From NCBI GenBank assembly GCA_002050235.1, contig MWST01000038.1, positions 1 to 64,000 on the forward strand: a stretch of 64,000 nucleotides of DNA. Reading direction: 5' to 3'. Source of the DNA: Polyangiaceae bacterium UTPRO1. GTDB taxonomy: Bacteria; Desulfobacterota; Binatia; UTPRO1. The notes beneath the pieces are model-generated. The model saw nothing but the letters and a program-made list of their open reading frames with translations. It searched no databases and was not told where the DNA came from. The translations under genes were made by a program, and so were the position numbers. Shown piece by piece: positions 39,629 through 50,181 of the stretch; position 1 is the first letter of the stretch, and the number at the start of each line of letters is the position of its first letter.

Positions 39629-39925
39629 TCAGTCCTCGTCGCCGCCGATGCCGAGCGGTCCGTCGTCGCCGCCGAGCCGCGTCTTCAACGCCCGCAGGCG
39701 GTGCAGCTCGGAATCGATGCGCACCAAGCGCTCGACCAGGCCGCGCAGCTCGCGGACGGCCGCGTCGAGATCCTGCCGTTCGATGACCTGGAGAGCGTTC
39801 GCTACGTGCTGCGAGACCGTGAGGAGGCCAACGATGCCGTCCATGCCCGCCGCCGCGACGCGCCGGTCGAGCTCGCCGTAGTAGCGCAGGATCCCCTCGG
39901 AGCGTCGCCGCAGATCGTCGTCCAC
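39629..39925 (-). CDS. Small helical coiled-coil protein, paralogue of 39161-39436
   Basis: 98 residues from a GTG at 39925. Mostly amphipathic helix (RRRSEGILRYYGELDRRV, LDAAVRELRGLVERLVRID), ending in a flexible Gly/Asp tail (GGDDGPLGIGGDED). It shares length, heptad pattern and key residues with the downstream gene, so the two arose by tandem duplication. It starts 49 bp after the deacetylase and is probably the tail of that operon. Function unknown; the fold resembles small helical-hairpin chaperones or adaptors only in the general sense. Confidence 0.65.
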   Translation of the reverse strand: MDDDLRRRSEGILRYYGELDRRVAAAGMDGIVGLLTVSQHVANALQVIERQDLDAAVRELRGLVERLVRIDSELHRLRALKTRLGGDDGPLGIGGDED

Positions 39926-39974
39926 GCCGCGACCACTAGCATCGGCAGCCGGTGGTCCGTCAATGGCGCTCCCG

Positions 39975-40940
39975 CTATGCGGTCAGCACTTTCAGCCGCA
40001 CCAGCGCGGCGTCGTCGTGCGGATACACCGGCACCCGCGGCAGCAGCTCGAGCGGCTGGCGTCCGAGGCGGCCGCGCGTCATCGTCGTCGCCGAACGATA
40101 GTGGCGCGCCACCCGCGCCGGCGCCACGGCGCCGATGCTGGCCGCGCCGCCGAAGGGATAGCAGAAGTGTCGGCAGTCGCGGCCGGTGTGGGCGGCGATC
40201 TTCTGCCGGCTCCGCACCAGCTCGCGCTCGAGCGCGTCGTCGTCGAGCGCGGCGACGGCGGTGTGGGTGACACCGTGGCTCTCGAAAGCCACGACGTCCT
40301 CGCGCGCGAGCGCCTCGACCTCGGGCCACGTGATCGCCGGCGGCGCCGCGAGCATCTCCGGCGCGACCAGTCCGCGAGCAACGAGCGCGTCGACGAGCGC
40401 CCGGAGCCGCGGGCCGTACTCCGCCCACGGCCGGGTGTACATCACCTTCGTCGTCGCCCGCGCGAAGGCGCGGACCGCACCCGGAGGCCGGAAGTCGAAC
40501 GTCTCGCCTCCCGCCGTGATCGCGACCGGCGGCGCGTACCGCTCGATGGCGCGCAGCCACTGAAAGGGCATGCCGCCCGGCGCATCGAGGTACGCGGTCG
40601 GCAGATAGAAGGTGACCGGCCAAGCGCGCGCCGCCGCGACGGCGGCGATCGTGCGCACGGTCTCGCCCACGCCGTCGTCGAAGGTGATCGCGAAGAGTCC
40701 GTGCGTCGTCGCACCGCGCGCATGGCGGCTGACGAGCTCGTCGAGGGCGAGCGGACGGCTCGGTGCGAGTGCCTCCACCTGCTCGACGAAGCGCGCCGCC
40801 GGCAAGTTGTGGTAGGCGAGCACGAAGCCGCCGCGTGCGCGTCCGCACAGGCGCTCGAGCGGCCCGTAGGCTCCGGCGCCGCTGAGCGCCCGCGCGGCCG
40901 CGGCACGCAATGCGCTCACCATCGCGGCGGCTGCGCTCAT
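39975..40940 (-). CDS. Polysaccharide deacetylase-like protein (CE4/NodB)
   Basis: 321 residues. FVLAYHNLPAARF opens the domain. FAITFDDGVGETV carries the catalytic/metal Asp pair, VAFESHGVTHTAVA the metal-binding His pair, and CRHFCYPFGG the Arg/Pro-Phe-Gly motif. The ATG at 40940 overlaps the GT4 stop by 4 nt. It lacks a signal peptide. The domain is longer than the deacetylase at 24165-24950, with an insert around residues 150-205. It likely deacetylates a lipid-linked sugar of the second glycan module. Confidence 0.88.
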   Translation of the reverse strand: MSAAAAMVSALRAAAARALSGAGAYGPLERLCGRARGGFVLAYHNLPAARFVEQVEALAPSRPLALDELVSRHARGATTHGLFAITFDDGVGETVRTIAAVAAARAWPVTFYLPTAYLDAPGGMPFQWLRAIERYAPPVAITAGGETFDFRPPGAVRAFARATTKVMYTRPWAEYGPRLRALVDALVARGLVAPEMLAAPPAITWPEVEALAREDVVAFESHGVTHTAVAALDDDALERELVRSRQKIAAHTGRDCRHFCYPFGGAASIGAVAPARVARHYRSATTMTRGRLGRQPLELLPRVPVYPHDDAALVRLKVLTA

Positions 40941-42082
40941 TCGTCTCGGTGCATCGATACGGCCGGCGCCGCGTTGCCGGCGGCGACGCGCGACCGACCG
41001 GGGCGACGCTCCGCCGCCGCGACGAGCCGCTCGTAGTGCCGCCCGAGCACGTCGAGATTGGTGGCGCGGTCGGCGCGCGCGCGCACGCGCGCGCGATTGC
41101 GGTCGCCCGCGGCCGTCCAGGCGGCCGGCGACTGCAGAGCGCGCGCGAGCGCGGCCGCGAGCGCCGGGGCGTCGTCGGGCGGAAACAACAGGCCGTCTCC
41201 TTCCCCGGCGAGCCATTCGCGGTTCGCCGGGCAGTCGCTGACCACGGGGTAGACGCCGGCGGCCATGGCCTCGAGGAGCGCCGGGCTCGTGCCGTCCCAG
41301 AGCGAGGCCGAGACGTAGACGTCGGCCGCGGCTAGGAGCGCGGGGAGCGCCTCGGGCAGATAGCCGCCGAGGAAGCGCACGCGGTCGGCGAGTCCGTGCG
41401 CCGCCACCTCGGCGCGGAGCGCTGCGCCGTCGCGGCCGTCGGCGGCGAAGGTCATCTCGAACGCGAGTCCGGCGGCCGCGAGCCGGGCCAACGCCGCGAC
41501 GATGATCCCGGGCTGATACGGCCGATGCAGCTTGCGGGTGCAGACTATGCGGGCAACCCCGTCCGGCCGCCGCGGCACGCGCGGCAGCGTGAAGCGCTCG
41601 ACGTCGATTCCCTGCGTCAGGCAGAGGATCTTCTCCGCCGGCACGCCGAGCGTGGCGATCTTCGCTGCCAGCTCGGCCGAGACCGGATTCACGAGATCCG
41701 CCCGCCGCACCACCCAGCGGGTCAGCGCCCGGCGGGCGTGCGAACGCAGCGAGTTGTGGACGTCGCTGCCGCGGGCGCTCACCACCAGAGGATGGAATCC
41801 GCTCGCAGCCGCGACCAGGCCGTTGCTGGTGAGGAAGTGGGCATGGACGAGATCCGGAGCGATGGCGCGCACCAAGCGCCGCACCCGCGGGATCGCGCAT
41901 ACGTAGGCCGTCGGGTGCTGCGTCGGATCGCACTCGCGCGGCAGGAGATGGTGATTCACCGCGTTCGGCAGCTGCTCGCGCGTGAAGCTGAGCAGATGGA
42001 TCTCGTGGCCGCGGCGCGCGAAGTGGTCGATGTACGGCGCCGCGAAATGACTCTGCGAGTGGACGATGTAGCAGATACGCAT
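40937..42082 (-). CDS. GT4-family glycosyltransferase
   Basis: 381 residues. The GT-B N-terminus is RICYIVHSQSHFAAPYIDHFA with HEIHLLSF and DLVHAHFLTSNGL. The donor half has LTQGIDVERFTLP and a SLWDGTSPALLEAMAAGVYPVVSD site, where EX7E is changed to D..E. The overall pattern fits the GT4 colanic-acid/WcaL-like group. It is followed by the deacetylase with a 4-nt overlap and follows asnB by 10 bp. The donor sugar is unknown. Confidence 0.9.
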   Translation of the reverse strand: MRICYIVHSQSHFAAPYIDHFARRGHEIHLLSFTREQLPNAVNHHLLPRECDPTQHPTAYVCAIPRVRRLVRAIAPDLVHAHFLTSNGLVAAASGFHPLVVSARGSDVHNSLRSHARRALTRWVVRRADLVNPVSAELAAKIATLGVPAEKILCLTQGIDVERFTLPRVPRRPDGVARIVCTRKLHRPYQPGIIVAALARLAAAGLAFEMTFAADGRDGAALRAEVAAHGLADRVRFLGGYLPEALPALLAAADVYVSASLWDGTSPALLEAMAAGVYPVVSDCPANREWLAGEGDGLLFPPDDAPALAAALARALQSPAAWTAAGDRNRARVRARADRATNLDVLGRHYERLVAAAERRPGRSRVAAGNAAPAVSMHRDE

Positions 42083-42092
42083 GGCGGTCCGC

Positions 42093-44021
42093 TCACCTCT
42101 CGGCGAGCGCCGGCATGGCGTGATCGGGCCCGAAGCTGCCGTCGACGAAGGTGCGGAACCAAAGCTCCAGCCAGAGGAGCAGCCAGAAGCGCGTGCCGTG
42201 CCGCGCCGCCCCCGACGCGTGGGCCCGCCACAGCCGCTCGAGGTACTCGAAATCGAAGAGGCCGCGGCTGCGCGCTTCGTCGGAGAAGATGATGGCGTGC
42301 GCCGCAGCGCTCCACGCGCCGCGGAACCAGGCGTCGTGCGGAATCGAAAAGCCGTGCTTGGGTCGATAGACGACCTCGCGCGGCAACCGCCCGGCAGCCA
42401 CCTTCTTGAGGAGCGACTTCGCTTCCCACGGCTTGAGCTTGGCGCGCGCCGGCACCGCTGCTGCCCATTCGACGACCTCACGGTCCAGGAAGGGACAGCG
42501 CGCTTCGAGGCTGCTCATCATGGTCGCGACGTCCACCTTCGGATTGTAGCCGAACGGCAGGAGGACGGAGAGATCGTGGTGCAGCGCCCGATCGAGCGCC
42601 GAGGTGCCGTCGAAGTCCGCTGCCGCCTCGAGAGCGTATCCGAGCAGTACGTCGCGGTCGGCGAGGCCGCGGTACGGCGCCGACCAGAGAGCGGGGATGT
42701 GGTGCAACGACCAGGTCGTCGCGCCGGCCCAGTTCACCAGCGGATCGGTCTGCGCGTAGCGCAGGAAGCGCGCTGCCGACGCGCGCCAGCCGCGGTCGCC
42801 GGCATCGAGCAGCGCCGTGTTCGCCCGCCGCCAGCGCTCGAGGAGCGGCTGCGGAACGACCCGACCGACCATTGCCCCGAGATACCGGCCGAGATGCTGG
42901 CTGTAGCCCGCGAAGGACTCGTCGCCGCCGTCGCCGGTGAGCGCGACGGTCACGTGCTGCCGGGCGCAGCGCGCCACGTAGTACGTCGGGATGCAGGCCT
43001 CGTCGCCGAAGGGTTGGCCGAACTCCCAGACGAGCCGCGGCAGCAGGCCCCAGGCGTCGGCCGTGACCTCGAACTCGGTGTGCTCGGTGCCGCAGTGCTC
43101 CGCGACCCGGCGCGCATGACCGCGCTCGTCGTGGGCGGCGTCCCCGGTGCCCATCGAGAACGTCCGCACTTTCCGGCTCACGCTCTCGGCCATGCAGCTG
43201 ACGACGATACCGCTGTCGACGCCGCCGCTCAGGAAGGCCCCGAGCGGCACGTCGCTCCTCAGACGGCGGCGCACCGCCGCCGCGACCACGCGATCGGCAT
43301 CGGCGACGAGATCCGCTTCCGGCCCGCGCAGCTTGCGGGCGAACGACAGCCGCCAGTAGCGCTCCTCGCACTGACCGTCCGGCGTCACCGTCAGGAAGTG
43401 CCCCGGCAGGAGTTGATAGGCGTCGGCGTAGATGGTCTCGCGCCCCGGCAGATAGGTCCAGTAGAGGAAGCGCGCCACCGAGTCCGGACGCACGTGCCAG
43501 CCGCCGGGATCGGTGATCCAGAGCGCCTTCAGCTCCGACGCGAAGAGGAACCGCCCGTCGTGCCACCCGTAGAAGAGGGGCTTCTTGCCGAGCCGGTCCC
43601 GCGCCAGAAGGAGCACCCGCCGGCGCGCATCCCAGATCGCGAAAGCGAACATGCCGTTGATGCGCTCGAGAAGGCCCCGGATCCCCCACTCCTCGTAGCC
43701 GTGCACGAGCACGTCCGAGTCGGAGTCGCTGATGAAGCGATGCCCGGCGGCCGCGAGCTCGGTCCGGAGCGCCGCGAAGTCGTAGATCTCGCCGTTGAAG
43801 ACGACCCACACCGAGCCGTCCTCGTTGCGCATCGGCTGCCGTCCGCGCGGCGACAGATCGATGATGCTGAGGCGACGGTGCGCGAGCGCGGCGTGCGTCA
43901 AGATCTCGGTACCGGCGTCGTCGGGTCCGCGGTTGACCATCGTCTCCCGCATGCGGGTGACGAGCTCCGGCGCAATCGGTCGGTCGCTGGCGAAATCGAC
44001 GATGCCGCAGATGCCGCACAT
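42093..44021 (-). CDS. asnB: AsnB-type glutamine amidotransferase (second copy)
   Basis: 642 residues. Cys2 nucleophile (MCGICGIVDF), NRGPDDAG, RRLSIIDLSPRGRQPM, NGEIYDF and SDSDVLVHGYEEWG in the glutaminase domain. FLSGGVDSGIV and TGDGGDESFAGYSQH in the synthetase domain. It is clearly diverged from the copy at 22185-24140, so it is not a recent duplication. Its place among GT4 and deacetylase genes points to amidation of a sugar acid or an aminoacyl-sugar step rather than free asparagine synthesis. The frame continues upstream, but that part lies within the GT4 gene. Confidence 0.9.
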   Translation of the reverse strand: MCGICGIVDFASDRPIAPELVTRMRETMVNRGPDDAGTEILTHAALAHRRLSIIDLSPRGRQPMRNEDGSVWVVFNGEIYDFAALRTELAAAGHRFISDSDSDVLVHGYEEWGIRGLLERINGMFAFAIWDARRRVLLLARDRLGKKPLFYGWHDGRFLFASELKALWITDPGGWHVRPDSVARFLYWTYLPGRETIYADAYQLLPGHFLTVTPDGQCEERYWRLSFARKLRGPEADLVADADRVVAAAVRRRLRSDVPLGAFLSGGVDSGIVVSCMAESVSRKVRTFSMGTGDAAHDERGHARRVAEHCGTEHTEFEVTADAWGLLPRLVWEFGQPFGDEACIPTYYVARCARQHVTVALTGDGGDESFAGYSQHLGRYLGAMVGRVVPQPLLERWRRANTALLDAGDRGWRASAARFLRYAQTDPLVNWAGATTWSLHHIPALWSAPYRGLADRDVLLGYALEAAADFDGTSALDRALHHDLSVLLPFGYNPKVDVATMMSSLEARCPFLDREVVEWAAAVPARAKLKPWEAKSLLKKVAAGRLPREVVYRPKHGFSIPHDAWFRGAWSAAAHAIIFSDEARSRGLFDFEYLERLWRAHASGAARHGTRFWLLLWLELWFRTFVDGSFGPDHAMPALAER

Positions 44022-44032
44022 CGACGACGGCC

Positions 44033-45154
44033 TCAGTCGCCTGCGAGCTCGGCGAAGATGGCGTTCCAGCGCGCGCTCACGACGGGCGCGGTGAACGAGC
44101 GGACCGAGTCGGCCGCGGCGGCGCGTAGCCGCGCCAGGGCCGACGGATCGCGCAGCAGGTCGAGGAGCGCTGCCGCCAACGCCCCGACGTCGCCCGCGGG
44201 CAGCAAGCGGCCGTTGACGCCGTCGCGCACGATCTCGCTCACCCCGTACGGGCAGTCGAAGGCGACGATCGGCAGCCCGCACGCCAGCGCTTCGAGCGCC
44301 ACGTTGGGCATGCCTTCGTAGCGCGACGAGAGCACGAAGACGTCGGCGTGCGCGAAGAAGCGCTCCGGCTGCTCCTGGAATCCCACGAAGTCGACGACAT
44401 CGGCGAGTCCGAGGGCGCGCGCGCGCGCGCCGAGCTCGGTCTCGAGCTCGCCGATGCCGACGATCGTGAGCCGGGCCCGCACGCCTTCCGCACACACTCG
44501 GGCGAAGGCTTCGAGCAGGAGGTCGAAGCCCTTCTGCCTGGTGAGGCGTCCCATCGCCAGCACGTGCGGGCCCGGATCCGTGAAGGGCGACGTCGAGCGC
44601 GCCGCCGCCGCCGCCAGGCGTTCGGCATCGACCGGGTTGTGGATGCACTCGACCTGCCCCGGACGCGGCGCGATCTCGCGGCCGAGCCGCTCGGCCACGG
44701 CCGCGGTCTGGGTCACGATGCGATCGGCCTTGCGCACCAGGCGGAGGTAGCACCGGTACAACACGTCGCGATAGCGATTATGCTCCATGTAGCGTTCGCC
44801 GATGACCTCGCGGATCACCAGCTTGGTCCGGGGCAGCACCGGCCGTGCCAGCAGCAGCAAGAAGTTGATGTAGCCCTGAGTCGCGACCACGACGGCGGGA
44901 CGGACGCGCCAGAGAAGACGCACGAGCTTCGGCATGGCGTTGCGCGCGCGCCTTGCTTCGAGGACGTGCATGACGACGTCGTCCGGCACCTCGGACGCGA
45001 ACCAGAAGCCGTAGAACCGGTAGAAGATCACCAGGTGCGGCTCGAACCGCGTCCGATCGAGGTGTCGCAGCAGTGTGATCACGACCCGCGCTGCGCCGCC
45101 ACCCAGGGTCGGCAACACGAACAGCACGGGACGTCGGGCTCGGGGATTGGTCAC
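44033..45154 (-). CDS. GT4-family glycosyltransferase (first gene of the second glycan module)
   Basis: 373 residues from a GTG at 45154 (an upstream in-frame GTG/ATG region to 45274 lacks homology-like sequence). PVLFVLPTLGGGAARVVITLLRHL at the N-terminus is typical of GT4 enzymes, with IHNPVDAERL, VLAMGRLTRQKGFDLLLEAF, and the donor EX7E in SRYEGMPNVALEALACGLPIVA. The start faces the divergently transcribed acyltransferase gene, with a 17-bp palindrome in the shared region. No strong ribosome site was seen, so the start is uncertain by a few codons. Confidence 0.9.
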   Translation of the reverse strand: MTNPRARRPVLFVLPTLGGGAARVVITLLRHLDRTRFEPHLVIFYRFYGFWFASEVPDDVVMHVLEARRARNAMPKLVRLLWRVRPAVVVATQGYINFLLLLARPVLPRTKLVIREVIGERYMEHNRYRDVLYRCYLRLVRKADRIVTQTAAVAERLGREIAPRPGQVECIHNPVDAERLAAAAARSTSPFTDPGPHVLAMGRLTRQKGFDLLLEAFARVCAEGVRARLTIVGIGELETELGARARALGLADVVDFVGFQEQPERFFAHADVFVLSSRYEGMPNVALEALACGLPIVAFDCPYGVSEIVRDGVNGRLLPAGDVGALAAALLDLLRDPSALARLRAAAADSVRSFTAPVVSARWNAIFAELAGD

Positions 45155-45240
45155 GATTTCGCAGCGCCGACGCAGTCGGAACGATCCATGCGCATAGCGA
45201 CGGCTGCCCGACGACGCAAGCTCGAAAAGCGAGCCTGAAA

Positions 45241-45257
45241 CCGCGTTGACAACGCGG
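45241..45257. promoter_or_regulatory. Perfect palindrome over a -35-like element between divergent genes
   Basis: CCGCGTTGACAACGCGG is a perfect 7-bp inverted repeat around GAC, and its centre contains TTGACA, a consensus -35. It lies 29 nt before the acyltransferase ATG and about 87 nt from the GT4 start. A repressor bound here would block a rightward promoter. No strong -10 follows at the proper distance, so promoter activity is unproven. Confidence 0.4.
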
Positions 45258-45285
45258 AAGATGGCGCGGACCATGGAGAGGTCGC

Positions 45286-46422
45286 ATGCTCACACGCCCC
45301 GGGCCACAGTCGACAGCCGCCGCCCCGGCGGCGCGCGCCTCCGCGCCCGGCCGGCAGGCCCTCGGACTGCTCGCCGCGAGCATCTATCCGAACGTCGGCG
45401 ATCACCCGGCATCGACCTTCGTCGCCGAGCTCGACGAGTCGGCGATCGCGCGCGTGCGCCGCGAGTCGCTGGCACTCCGGCTCCGCCTTCGGGTGCCGGT
45501 GACAGCGGAGCTCCGCTACGTCGCCGACGCCACCGCGACCGCGCTCGTAGCCACGCTCGGCGACCTCGCAAGCCACGAGGTCACCGTCGTCACGCGCCCG
45601 ATCGGCAACGCGACCGCCCCGGCCGCCGCGCTGCACCCGGGCGGCGCCGCAGCGGCGCCGATCGCGAGCGAGCCCGACCCCTTCGGCCTCGACCCGGAGC
45701 TCCGCGCCCTCGCCCTACCGGCGTTCCGCTTCATGTTCGAGCGCTACTGGCGCATCGAGGTGAGCGGCCTCGATCGGCTCCCGGCCGGCAGAGCGCTCGT
45801 AGTGGCCAACCACGCGGGGGCCGTCCCCGCCGACGCCTTCATGATGGCGACCGCGCTCGAGCTCCGTGGCGGTCGTCGCTTGCGCGTTCTCTACGACAAG
45901 TTCGTCGACGCGCTGCCCTTCATCGGCGTTTTCTATCGCCGCCTCGGCGGCGTCACCGCCTCCTTGCCGAACGCCGAGCGCTTGCTGCGGCGCGGCGAGC
46001 TGGTCGGCCTGTTTCCCGAAGGCATCGCCGGCGTCGAGAAGCGCTGCGCGGAGGGCTACCGGCTGCGTCCGTTCAAGACCGGCGCCGCCTGGCTCAGCAT
46101 CCGTACCGACAGCCCCATCGTGCCGGTCGCCATCGTCGGCGCTGCCGAAGCCTACCCCGTGGTCGCGCGCCTCTATCGCGCCGGGCGGCTCGTCGGCATT
46201 CCATGGATCCCCGTCACACCGACCTTCCCCCTCTGCGGCGTCGCCGGCGCCCTGCCGCTGCCCTCCAAGTGGATGATGCACTTCGGGGCGCCGATCCAGC
46301 CACCGCCGCCGGACGGCCGCTCCGAGAGCGAACGGATCGCGACGCTCACTGCCCGCGTCCGCGACGCCATCGCCGAGAGCCTGCGCGTACTGCTCGCCAA
46401 ACGCAGCGGAATCTTCCTATAA
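45286..46422 (+). CDS. PlsC-like lysophospholipid acyltransferase with extra N-terminal domain
   Basis: 378 residues. The acyltransferase domain lies at about 140-370, with VVANHAGAVPADAFM (catalytic His, spaced Asp as in the NHxGxxPxD subgroup) and VGLFPEGIAG (motif III). The first ~135 residues are not part of the domain; they include a LRLRLRVPVTAELRYVADATATALVATLGD stretch, shown here only by position (about 66-95), and match nothing I recognise. There is no membrane helix in the N-terminus. GGAGAGG precedes the ATG. It is divergent from the second glycan module, so the substrate could be a phospholipid or a glycolipid. Confidence 0.82.
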   Translation: MLTRPGPQSTAAAPAARASAPGRQALGLLAASIYPNVGDHPASTFVAELDESAIARVRRESLALRLRLRVPVTAELRYVADATATALVATLGDLASHEVTVVTRPIGNATAPAAALHPGGAAAAPIASEPDPFGLDPELRALALPAFRFMFERYWRIEVSGLDRLPAGRALVVANHAGAVPADAFMMATALELRGGRRLRVLYDKFVDALPFIGVFYRRLGGVTASLPNAERLLRRGELVGLFPEGIAGVEKRCAEGYRLRPFKTGAAWLSIRTDSPIVPVAIVGAAEAYPVVARLYRAGRLVGIPWIPVTPTFPLCGVAGALPLPSKWMMHFGAPIQPPPPDGRSESERIATLTARVRDAIAESLRVLLAKRSGIFL

Positions 46423-46521: not shown

Positions 46522-47025
46522 ATGCGCAGTCATCTGGCCTTGGTCGCCGCGCTGGCGTTCGGCGGCGCCGCCTGCTCGCAGCTCCTGCAACCGACCGTCC
46601 GTCCCTGCACTGCTCCAGCGGCGCGCCGAGCGACGGGCGGCATCGGCATCATCGGCATGTCCCTCGACCGTCATCCGGGAGCGAGCGGCAGCCCGGAGCT
46701 CGTCGTCGATCGCGTCGTTCCCGACGGTCCGGCCGCCGCCGCCGGCGTTCGCCCCGGCGATCGCATCCTCGAGATCGAGGGATCGTCGACCGCGACCATG
46801 TCGATCGCGGACGCGGCCCGCCGCCTGCGCGGTCCGGTCGACGCGCCGGTAGCGCTCGTCATCTCCACCGGCGACCGGTCACGGGACGTCACCATCATCC
46901 GCGTCGCCCCGAGCGCGCTCTGGAACGCGACCGGCCGCGGCGCACGGACCACCGGCAAGGGAATCGTACCCGCCACCGATCTGGCGCCGGCCGCGAAGGC
47001 GGCGGCGCCTCCATGTCGCCCCTGA
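46522..47025 (+). CDS. PDZ-domain lipoprotein
   Basis: 167 residues. A signal peptide ends in a lipobox (FGGAAC, Cys18), so the protein is lipid-anchored at a membrane. A PDZ domain spans about residues 45-130 (IIGMSLDRHPGASGSP, VVPDGPAAAAGVRPGDRILEIEG). GGGAGGGGG lies 7 nt before the ATG. It follows the acyltransferase by 99 bp on the same strand. PDZ lipoproteins usually scaffold proteases or secretion parts; no protease is nearby. The Ala/Pro tail is low complexity. Confidence 0.75.
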   Translation: MRSHLALVAALAFGGAACSQLLQPTVRPCTAPAARRATGGIGIIGMSLDRHPGASGSPELVVDRVVPDGPAAAAGVRPGDRILEIEGSSTATMSIADAARRLRGPVDAPVALVISTGDRSRDVTIIRVAPSALWNATGRGARTTGKGIVPATDLAPAAKAAAPPCRP

Positions 47026-47040: not shown

Positions 47041-47526
47041 CTATGCCTTGCAGCGCACGCCGGCGGTCACGAAGTACGAGCCCGTCTCTCTGACGGTCCC
47101 GCCGAAGACGTCGGCGACGCCCGCCGGCTCTATGGAAGCGATCGCCACCGCACCCGCCGAGGTCTGCATCGCTCCGTCCTTGCGGCGGAAGACGTAGCCC
47201 TCCGGGTAGTAGGCGAAGCTGTCGAGGAGGTCGCCGGGGGCGAGCGACGTCACCGGACGCTCGGCGCCGTCGCGCCCGTAGAAGACGTGGCCGTGGTCCA
47301 CCGCTACCGACAGGCCGTTGTCGAACGTCACCCGCAGGATCGGCACCGCGCTCGCCGCCACGGCGATCTTGGAGAAGAGCCGGAACCCGATCCGACCGTC
47401 CGGGAGCCGGGTCATGACCGTCACCGACTTCCCGGCGAGGCCGCCGATCGCAACCGGTCCGTCGACGCTCTCGATGAGGCTCTCTCCGGTGAGACACCCG
47501 CGCTCGCATCGTCGTTCGCCGCGCAC
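47041..47526 (-). CDS. Stand-alone Hint-domain (intein/hedgehog-like) protein
   Basis: 161 residues from a GTG at 47526 with GGAGG 5-6 nt upstream. After 10 residues a Cys11 opens a Hint domain: CLTGESLIESVDGPVAIGGL (block A), VTFDNGLSVAVDHGHVFYG (block B with His78), PGDLL, and VADVFGGTVRETGSYFVTAG (blocks F/G). The chain stops at VRCKA where a C-terminal splice junction (His-Asn then Cys/Ser/Thr) would be, so splicing is impossible but an N-terminal acyl shift is not excluded. No larger host gene carries it. It is convergent with the PDZ gene, 15 bp apart. Role unknown. Confidence 0.75.
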   Translation of the reverse strand: MRGERRCERGCLTGESLIESVDGPVAIGGLAGKSVTVMTRLPDGRIGFRLFSKIAVAASAVPILRVTFDNGLSVAVDHGHVFYGRDGAERPVTSLAPGDLLDSFAYYPEGYVFRRKDGAMQTSAGAVAIASIEPAGVADVFGGTVRETGSYFVTAGVRCKA

Positions 47527-47684
47527 GCCGCCCTCCTTTCGCGTCGCCGCCGAGCTTGCCACGAGAGCCCGCCGCAGCGCGAGGGACGCTCTTACACGGC
47601 GCCGCGACCTGGCGCCACGCAGCCGCCGCCACGGTCGCGGCCGTTGACAGTCGTCACCCCCTCTGTGAGAAGACGCGCCGCCCC

Positions 47685-48098
47685 ATGCCTCGGCATCTAG
47701 CGTATCGTGCGCTCGCCGCGGTGACCGCGTGCAGCCTCTTCCTCTTCGGATTCGTCTTCGTCTGCGGATTCATCGACCGGGCCCTCTTCCAGGTCCTGGC
47801 CCGTCCTCTCTTCGCCACCGATTTCTGGGGCTATTACATCCTCGGCGTCGCCGGCTCGGCGCTGATCGTCTGGGCCGCAGCGCTCTTCGCCGCGGTGCGG
47901 GCACCGACCCTGCACCCCGGAGTCGCGACTGCGACCACGGTCGGCTTGATCCTCGGCGCCATCCTGCGCCTGCTCGCCTGGTACTCCGGGGAGTATCGGC
48001 AGGCGGGCGATCAACTCCGCCTCGAGACGGCCGTGCTCCTCGTCCTCGCCCTCGGCTTCATCTGGCTGCGTCCGCCGCGGCTGCCCCCGCCCGCATGA
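47685..48098 (+). CDS. Small polytopic membrane protein (four helices)
   Basis: 137 residues from the ATG at 47685. Four hydrophobic segments (about 10-32, 45-66, 80-98, 112-128) with short polar loops; the first contains VTACSLFLFGFVFVCGFID. No family motif was recognised. Its stop overlaps the ATG of the thioredoxin-fold gene (ATGA), so the two are co-translated and probably work together in the inner membrane. Upstream in-frame codons lie within the antisense Hint gene's promoter side and are not used. Confidence 0.65.
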   Translation: MPRHLAYRALAAVTACSLFLFGFVFVCGFIDRALFQVLARPLFATDFWGYYILGVAGSALIVWAAALFAAVRAPTLHPGVATATTVGLILGAILRLLAWYSGEYRQAGDQLRLETAVLLVLALGFIWLRPPRLPPPA

Positions 48099-48792: not shown

Positions 48793-50181
48793 ATGCGGCT
48801 CGCGGCGCGTGTCCACGGACGGAGCCACCGCTTCACCTCGGTGCGCGACGTCCTGGCACGCGCCAACGAGCCCAAGGCCGGCGACGAGCGGGCCGGAATC
48901 GCCGCCCGTTCGCACGAAGAGCGCGCCGCCGCCAAGCTCGTGGTCGCCGAGCTCACCCTCGCCGACCTGCGCGAGAATCCGGTGGCGCCCCTCGACGAGG
49001 ACGAGGTGAGTCGCGTCATCGACGCCGGCGTCGACGAAGCGGTGTACCGCGAGATCCGCGGCTGGAGCGTCGGCGAGCTGCGCGATTGGCTCCTCGCCGA
49101 CGACACCTCGGTCGCGGCCGTGCAGCGCCTGCGTCGCGGCCTCACGGCCGAGATGGCCGCCGCGGTCGCCAAGATCTCGTCGAACCTCGACCTCGTCTAT
49201 GCGGCGCGCCGCCTGCCGGTGACGACGCGCGCCCGCACGACGGTCGGCCTGCCGGGCCGCTTGAGCACGCGCCTGCAGCCCAACCACCCGAGCGACGACC
49301 CCGACGGCATCACCGCGGCGATCTACGAGGGACTCGCCTACGGCGCCGGCGATGCGCTGATCGGCATCAATCCCGGCAGCGACGACGTGGCGAACGTGAG
49401 CAAGCTCCTCGAGCTCACCCGCGACCTCATCTCCCGGCTCGGCGTACCGACCCAGAACTGCGTCCTCGCGCACGTGACCACGCAGATGCGGGCGCTCGAG
49501 CGCGGCGCGCCCATGGACATCCTCTTCCAGAGTCTCGCCGGCACCGAGGCCGCGGTCGCGAGCTTCGGAACCTCCGTAGCGATGCTCGACGAAGCGAGCG
49601 CGATGATCCGCGAGCGGTCGACGCTGCGCACCCACGGCGGCCGCACCGGCCGGCTGCAGCTCATGTACTTCGAGACCGGCCAAGGATCGGAGCTCTCGGC
49701 AGGCGCCCACGGCGGCGCCGATCAGGTGACGCTCGAAGCGCGCTGCTACGGACTCGCGCGCCGCTACGACCCGTTCCTCGTCAACACCGTCGTCGGTTTC
49801 ATCGGCCCCGAATATCTCGCCGACGGGCGCCAGATCGTGCGCGCCGGACTCGAGGACCACTTCATGGGGAAGCTGCTCGGCGTGCCCATCGGCGCCGACG
49901 CCTGCTACACCAATCACGCCGAGGCCGATCAGAACGACTGCGACAACCTCGCCGCCCTGCTCGCGACCGCCGGCTGCAACTATTTCATGGGCGTTCCCGC
50001 CGGCGACGACGTGATGCTCGGCTACCAGACCACGAGCTACCACGACGGCGCGACGCTGCGGCAGCTCCTCGGGCTGCGGCCGGCGCCGGAGTTCGAGGCG
50101 TGGCTCGTCGAACGCGGCCTGCTGGCGGACGGCCGCCTCACCGACCGCGCCGGCGACCCGGCGGTGTTCCTCCCCCGATGA
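48793..50181 (+). CDS. eutB: Ethanolamine ammonia-lyase large subunit (EutB)
   Basis: 462 residues, the usual EutB length. Highly conserved EutB blocks are visible: LQPNHPSDDPDGITAAIYEG, GDALIGINPGSDDV, CVLAHVTTQM, FQSLAGTEAA, STLRTHGG, FETGQGSELSAGAHGGADQVT and YTNHAEADQND. With EutC it forms the adenosylcobalamin-dependent enzyme that converts ethanolamine to acetaldehyde and ammonia. The gene overlaps eutC by 4 nt. No eutA reactivase, permease, aldehyde dehydrogenase or microcompartment shell gene is visible on either side. Confidence 0.95.
   Translation: MRLAARVHGRSHRFTSVRDVLARANEPKAGDERAGIAARSHEERAAAKLVVAELTLADLRENPVAPLDEDEVSRVIDAGVDEAVYREIRGWSVGELRDWLLADDTSVAAVQRLRRGLTAEMAAAVAKISSNLDLVYAARRLPVTTRARTTVGLPGRLSTRLQPNHPSDDPDGITAAIYEGLAYGAGDALIGINPGSDDVANVSKLLELTRDLISRLGVPTQNCVLAHVTTQMRALERGAPMDILFQSLAGTEAAVASFGTSVAMLDEASAMIRERSTLRTHGGRTGRLQLMYFETGQGSELSAGAHGGADQVTLEARCYGLARRYDPFLVNTVVGFIGPEYLADGRQIVRAGLEDHFMGKLLGVPIGADACYTNHAEADQNDCDNLAALLATAGCNYFMGVPAGDDVMLGYQTTSYHDGATLRQLLGLRPAPEFEAWLVERGLLADGRLTDRAGDPAVFLPR

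What the first reader, a model, noticed from the sequence alone, without database searches (positions are those of the whole stretch)
47041..47526. Free-standing Hint domain with the N-terminal Cys but no splice junction at the end
Hint folds occur in inteins, hedgehog proteins and toxin delivery. Here the whole protein is the Hint domain with 10 residues before Cys11, and it ends where the His-Asn should be. The N-terminal Cys and the block B His are present, so thioester formation is possible while splicing is not. With another Cys at residue 7 and one at 159, self-modification or cleavage of the short N-terminal peptide is conceivable.
Basis: partly seen in the sequence, partly recalled or inferred. 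Interest (0 to 1): 0.65.

Follow-up and report, generated by a model that had tools for sequence, protein, structure and literature searches.

The report
Stand-alone, splicing-dead intein-fold protein
A small bacterial gene encodes nothing but the fold of a self-splicing protein element (an intein) that has lost the residues needed to splice, and it has been kept as an ordinary gene across many related bacteria, which suggests a parasite-derived module put to a new, still unknown use.

Summary
The ORF is real: 161 aa, minus strand 47526..47041, GTG start with an AGGAGG ribosome site. It is a complete, stand-alone Hint (intein-fold) domain. AlphaFold gives pLDDT 93.8, and structural alignment puts Cys11 on intein residue 1 and the last residue, Ala161, on the intein's terminal Asn.

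It belongs to an orthologous family of stand-alone proteins. The single-sequence search found it in 40 of 148 genomes of the class and all six of its own taxonomic family; it is mostly single copy and under purifying selection (dN/dS 0.15-0.28). The terminal His-Asn is absent from all 37 full-length members. Cys11 occurs only in the window's own family; elsewhere it is Arg, Gly, Ala, Gln, Val or Ser. His80 is Gln in five of eight families. Neighbour genes differ between families. So splicing is excluded, and thioester self-cleavage cannot be the family's shared function, though it is untested in the window's lineage.

The nearest relatives found outside are inteins in ribonucleotide reductase genes. 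Best reading: a retired intein domain domesticated as a non-catalytic module; its role is unknown. New variant of a known kind, moderate interest.

The parts
47041..47526 (-). stand-alone Hint-fold protein, 161 aa (GTG start, TAG stop)
   Evidence: ORF; fold; orthologues; dN/dS 0.15-0.28
47532..47537 (-). ribosome-binding site AGGAGG, 5 nt before the GTG
   Evidence: kept in L034 and L035
47497..47526 (-). residues 1-10 (MRGERRCERG), the stretch before intein position 1
   Evidence: identical in the three genomes of the genus; R-C-x-x-G-C kept throughout the taxonomic family
47494..47496 (-). Cys11 codon, structurally intein position 1
   Evidence: VIA-align: model residue 11 on chain residue 1; not conserved outside the taxonomic family
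47287..47289 (-). His80 codon, equivalent of block B His; Asp77 replaces the block B Thr
   Evidence: HMM alignment to inteins; column counts
47050..47052 (-). Cys159 codon, third residue from the C-terminus
   Evidence: C in families f1, f4, f5, f8 and part of f7; mostly S, G or L elsewhere
47044..47049 (-). Lys160-Ala161, in place of the intein terminal His-Asn
   Evidence: model residue 161 aligns with residue 154 of 1mi8 and residue 440 of the Mtu RecA intein; no His-Asn in any of 37 rows

Best explanation
The gene encodes a retired intein splicing domain that became an independent, vertically inherited cellular gene. SHOWN: full Hint fold (predicted model); no exteins; no terminal His-Asn and no +1 nucleophile in any full-length member; Cys1 kept only in the window's own taxonomic family; block B Thr lost everywhere and block B His lost in five families; purifying selection; mostly single copy; no recurrent partner gene across families. 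INFERRED: it descends from an intein of the ribonucleotide reductase (NrdJ-like) lineage that lost its endonuclease and its host; it no longer does splicing or cleavage chemistry as its shared job, but works as a compact, probably cytosolic binding or structural module whose ends pack where the splice junctions used to be. The positions most conserved in the family (Glu19, Gly23-Pro24, Thr39-Arg40, Gly44, Phe48-Arg49, Gly98, Leu101, Pro108, Gly110-Tyr111, Gly156) are the likely working surface or core; part of this (the V-x-x-R...G-R...R-M-M stretch) is already present in the reductase inteins, so it may be inherited structure rather than new function.
For: Fold; same fold for a Cys1-less member (pLDDT 91.6; Z 19.7 to 1mi8). 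Family. Catalytic residues. Selection. Neighbours conserved only within families. Intein kinship: the profile hits reductase inteins at E 7e-18 to 2.5e-16 (56-61 bits; host identified) against 22-31 bits for DnaB inteins of the class. Reciprocally, one reductase intein as query finds this family first in the class, the window's genus best (E 1.8e-10 to 2.1e-9, 37-38% identity), with no reductase intein seen in the class and the best true intein there at 5.9e-6. The reductase genes of the window's genome match across the insertion site without an insert.
Against: No functional partner or phenotype is known, so 'binding module' is the default left after shared catalysis is excluded. The tree of the short N-terminal half neither shows nor rejects a clade of this family with the reductase inteins (p-AU 0.376). 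In the window's own lineage Cys7, Cys11, His80 and Cys159 are all kept, which could mean retained chemistry there. Distribution outside the phylum was tested only with phage, plasmid and viral-contig collections and one close-relative scan of 84,980 genomes.
Confidence: 0.62

Rival explanations
1. One reading: in the window's lineage the protein still makes an N-terminal thioester (N-S acyl shift at Gly10-Cys11) and releases or transfers the decapeptide MRGERRCERG.
For: Cys11 on intein position 1, Gly before it, His80 at the block B His position; R-C-x-x-G-C and D-x-x-H kept in all members of the taxonomic family that could be read.
Against: Block B Thr is Asp; Cys11 absent from all other families; no second nucleophile or Asn to complete a reaction; the proposed product is a basic peptide with no recognisable target.
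Confidence: 0.12
2. The old active site was turned into a thiol or metal site: N-terminal Cys residues pair with Cys159 (disulfide, or metal ligand with His80), giving a redox- or metal-sensing switch.
For: N-terminal Cys and Cys159 mostly occur together: 16 rows have both, 15 neither, 6 only one. The model matches a DnaE intein solved as a redox trap with an N-extein (3nzm, Z 18.3).
Against: The pairing does not reach significance once shared ancestry is counted (3 independent pairs only); clades f14 (one exception with Cys159) and f9 and most of f6 have no such Cys; the N-terminal Cys sits at different positions in different families.
Confidence: 0.12
3. It is a bacterial intein-like (BIL type B-like) autocleavage domain.
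For: Lacks the block G His-Asn, as type B BILs do (definition in PMC4031507); the C. thermocellum BIL structure 2lwy matches at Z 17.7.
Against: BIL domains act on flanking protein; here there is none beyond 10 residues, and Cys1 is lost in most members.
Confidence: 0.06
4. Functionless intein debris on its way out.
For: Catalytic residues gone in different ways in different families; patchy presence in the class (40 of 148 genomes).
Against: dN/dS 0.15-0.28 within the genus; intact in the full-length members read, with six invariant residues over a deep tree; present in 6 of 6 genomes of the taxonomic family.
Confidence: 0.06

Closest known systems
Inteins of ribonucleotide reductase (NrdJ-like, TNPC insertion site, some with HNH endonuclease), e.g. 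loci L116-L120 and reductase genes of Thermus phages TSP4, G20c and P23-45
   Same: Hint N-terminal half about 38% identical to the window protein, including Cys1 and the V-x-x-R...G-R...R stretch
   Different: Those are embedded in a reductase, have block B T-x-x-H and in some an endonuclease; the window protein has no host, no endonuclease and no C-terminal splice residues
Mini-inteins of DnaB, DnaE and RecA (1mi8, 4kl5, 3ifj)
   Same: Same fold over the whole protein (Z 19-20, rmsd 1.7-2.1 A)
   Different: 17-19% identity; the splicing residues are missing
Yeast HO endonuclease, a stand-alone domesticated intein relative (PMC7282813)
   Same: Independently expressed stand-alone gene related to inteins; no splicing, no exteins
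   Different: HO kept the endonuclease and has a zinc finger; the window protein kept only the Hint part
Bacterial intein-like (BIL) domains, type A and B (PMC4031507, PMC2362128)
   Same: Hint fold without a full set of splicing residues
   Different: BILs sit within larger proteins and cleave at their flanks; this is a whole protein, mostly without Cys1

Membership tests
Hint fold superfamily | Hint fold over the whole domain | tested here: met
   sequence profile to inteins E 5.7e-7
Intein | nucleophile (Cys/Ser) at position 1 | tested here: met
   Cys11 in the window protein; but only 5 of 37 family rows have Cys there (one more, f9, has Ser)
Intein | block B T-x-x-H | tested here: not met
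   D77-H78-G79-H80: Thr replaced, His kept; Gln at 80 in families f5-f9
Intein | C-terminal Asn (usually His-Asn) | tested here: not met
   Lys160-Ala161 here; no Asn there in any of 37 rows
Intein | in-frame exteins and a +1 nucleophile | tested here: not met
   stop codon right after residue 161; only 10 residues before Cys11; divergent conserved gene upstream
BIL domain type A | C-terminal His-Asn | tested here: not met
BIL domain type B | no block G similarity but cleavage at the domain's ends | not testable with these tools
   His-Asn absent; cleavage needs a bench assay; there is almost no flanking protein
Hedgehog autoprocessing domain (Hog) | a signalling domain before Hint and a sterol-recognition region after it | tested here: not met
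   protein ends with the Hint fold and starts 10 residues before it
Polymorphic-toxin Hint (PF07591) proteins | Hint joined to a toxin and its delivery parts | tested here: not met
   Hint domain alone; no PF07591 match in any member; no toxin-like neighbour recognised

The most novel reading that the evidence does not exclude
An intein of a ribonucleotide reductase (a lineage also carried by phages) was domesticated once in an ancestor of several families of one bacterial class, lost endonuclease and splicing, and became a conserved stand-alone cellular protein with a new, non-splicing function: a bacterial counterpart of yeast HO, but keeping the Hint half instead of the endonuclease.
Probability: 0.35. 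Interest if true: 0.65.

Novelty: new variant of a known kind. Interest (0 to 1): 0.45.

Why it matters
Inteins are usually seen as selfish elements; the documented domesticated stand-alone case considered here is yeast HO, which keeps the endonuclease. A conserved stand-alone bacterial family that keeps only the splicing fold, with splicing residues lost in clade-specific ways, would show that the Hint fold can live on for another use. It also gives a natural series, with and without Cys1 and the block B His, for asking what a Hint fold does when it no longer splices.

Tried and rejected
Split host gene or frameshift upstream: rejected (divergent conserved gene; own start and ribosome site). 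Phage or plasmid cargo: no match in phages, plasmids or viral contigs. Defence or phage protein families: nothing meaningful in PADLOC or PHROGs. Fixed operon partner: no neighbour recurs across all families; a uracil-DNA-glycosylase-like gene next to it in f4 and f9, and shared segments in f7/f8 and f5/f8, are the only links between families seen. Long upstream extension (GTG 47562): not conserved in the genus. Simple promoter and terminator scan: nothing. Tree test of origin from reductase inteins: inconclusive. Correlation of N-terminal Cys with Cys159: suggestive by rows, not significant by independent pairs. A paper search on a guessed class name gave nothing, so the organism is named only by its nearest record.

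Full report
1. Observation. The minus-strand ORF 47526..47041 is real. AGGAGG lies 5 nt before the GTG at 47526, and the same start and site occur in two other genomes of the genus (L034, L035). The longer start at 47562 is not shared.

2. Is it a Hint domain? From one sequence the evidence is thin: nothing in Pfam, NCBIfam intein models at E 0.008-0.013. With 37 orthologues the profile reaches solved inteins at E 5.7e-7. AlphaFold gives mean pLDDT 93.8. The top 50 Foldseek and VIA-align entries are inteins, BIL domains and Hedgehog: 1mi8 Z 20.2, rmsd 1.7 A over 133 residues; NpuDnaE 4kl5 Z 19.1. In these alignments model residues 11..161 cover intein residues 1..last. So the protein is a complete Hint domain with a 10-residue head and no tail.

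3. Family. All 6 genomes of the taxonomic family have it, and 40 of 148 genomes of the class in the single-sequence search. G001 and G003 show pieces at contig ends, so their copy number is unsure. A profile search raises the count to 50, but the ten extra genomes hold distant matches: mostly true inteins, such as DnaB inteins, and a second kind of stand-alone Hint-like protein in f3. In the phylum sample (395 genomes, E up to 1e-12) only class members have the stand-alone form; the other matches, in f43, are parts of large ORFs. The gene tree largely follows taxonomic families. dN/dS is 0.15, 0.18 and 0.28 for the three pairs in the genus.

4. Catalytic residues. The roles of Cys1, Thr-B7, His-B10, His-G6 and Asn-G7 in inteins are from PMC4031507. 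In the 37 rows: position 1 is Cys only in the window's family (one change on the tree); elsewhere R (f14), G (f4, part of f7), A (f8, part of f7, one f6), Q (f6), V (f5), S (f9). B7 (residue 77) is D, G, A, V or L, never Thr. B10 (His80) is His in f1, f4 and f14 and Gln in f5-f9 (two changes). The last two positions are never His-Asn. A Cys1-less f14 member keeps the same predicted fold (pLDDT 91.6; Z 19.7 to 1mi8). So no member can splice by a known route, and Cys1 thioester chemistry cannot be the shared function.

5. Surroundings. In the window the gene stands alone between a convergent PDZ-domain gene (46522-47025 +, Pfam) and a divergent gene (47684-48098 +, membrane-protein-like by eye). 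Gene-calling in relatives was a simple codon-position score, so small neighbours may be missed. Across families the neighbours change: in f14 an ATP synthase a-subunit-like gene, a ParB-like gene, an alcohol dehydrogenase-like gene, a riboflavin synthase-like gene and a ClpB-like gene; in f6 a type III pantothenate kinase-like gene, an EF-G-like gene and an electron-transfer-flavoprotein-like gene; in f4 a DnaA-like gene and a uracil-DNA-glycosylase-like gene. These names are my reading of the sequences, not searched. No partner recurs throughout, and no mobile or toxin context was recognised.

6. Origin. The nearest outside relatives found are inteins in ribonucleotide reductase large subunits of f43 in the same phylum (E 7e-18 to 2.5e-16; host by Pfam), inserted after T-N-P at the TNPC site. 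They share V-x-x-R...G-R...R-M-M with the family. As a query, one of them finds this stand-alone family best in the class, the window's genus first (E 1.8e-10 to 2.1e-9), ahead of the class's DnaB inteins. The reductase genes of the window's genome match straight across the site. Relatives of that intein lie in reductase genes of Thermus phages. A tree of the 94 usable columns cannot decide (p-AU 0.376). I therefore hold the origin as likely, not shown.

7. Mechanism. Shown: Hint fold (predicted), no splice junctions, clade-specific loss of catalytic residues, purifying selection. Inferred: a domesticated, non-catalytic module. A thiol or metal site made of N-terminal Cys and Cys159 is a fair rival (16 rows both, 15 neither, 6 one only; but 3 independent pairs).

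8. Comparison. It is in the Hint superfamily but fails defining tests of an intein (no T-x-x-H, no terminal Asn, no exteins). It is like yeast HO in being a stand-alone gene related to inteins that does not splice (PMC7282813), but keeps the opposite part. Several Hint-like subgroups outside inteins, some bacterial, are on record (PMC2362128); I could not test whether this family is among them.

9. Verdict. Observation confirmed, interpretation partly supported, new variant of a known kind, interest 0.45.

Noticed in passing
L112:2366-6658 (-), genome G067 contig C91: An intein-like Hint domain inside an aconitase gene (Aconitase and Aconitase_C Pfam domains on either side, Intein_splicing E 1e-7, just under the curated cut-off), to my knowledge an unusual host for an intein.
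   Followed up: partly
L102:3679-4335, L104:3801-4493, L106:2789-3388, L108:3885-4508 (+), taxonomic family f3: A second, distant set of stand-alone Hint-like proteins (open frames of 200-231 residues) without terminal His-Asn, some with Cys and some with Gly at position 1; forms its own starred clade.
   Followed up: partly
L116, L117, L119, L120: The reductase inteins at the TNPC site seem to end in Gln (VNVLQ, VNVRQ or INTCQ before CGEQPLL) instead of Asn.
   Followed up: no
L036 around 8144 and L037 around 3375: In the sister genus a quinone-oxidoreductase-like gene lies directly upstream, its stop overlapping the Hint start (ATGA), so the two may be translated together there.
   Followed up: no
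f4 loci (e.g. L052:8709-9467, L056:8558-9313) and L044:8795-9673 (f9): A uracil-DNA-glycosylase-like frame overlaps the end of the Hint gene in two taxonomic families.
   Followed up: no
window 48793-50181 (+) and about 39800-45300 (-): An EutB ethanolamine ammonia-lyase large subunit gene (Pfam E 3.4e-196), and a run of glycosyltransferase-like and asparagine-synthase-like frames (by eye).
   Followed up: no
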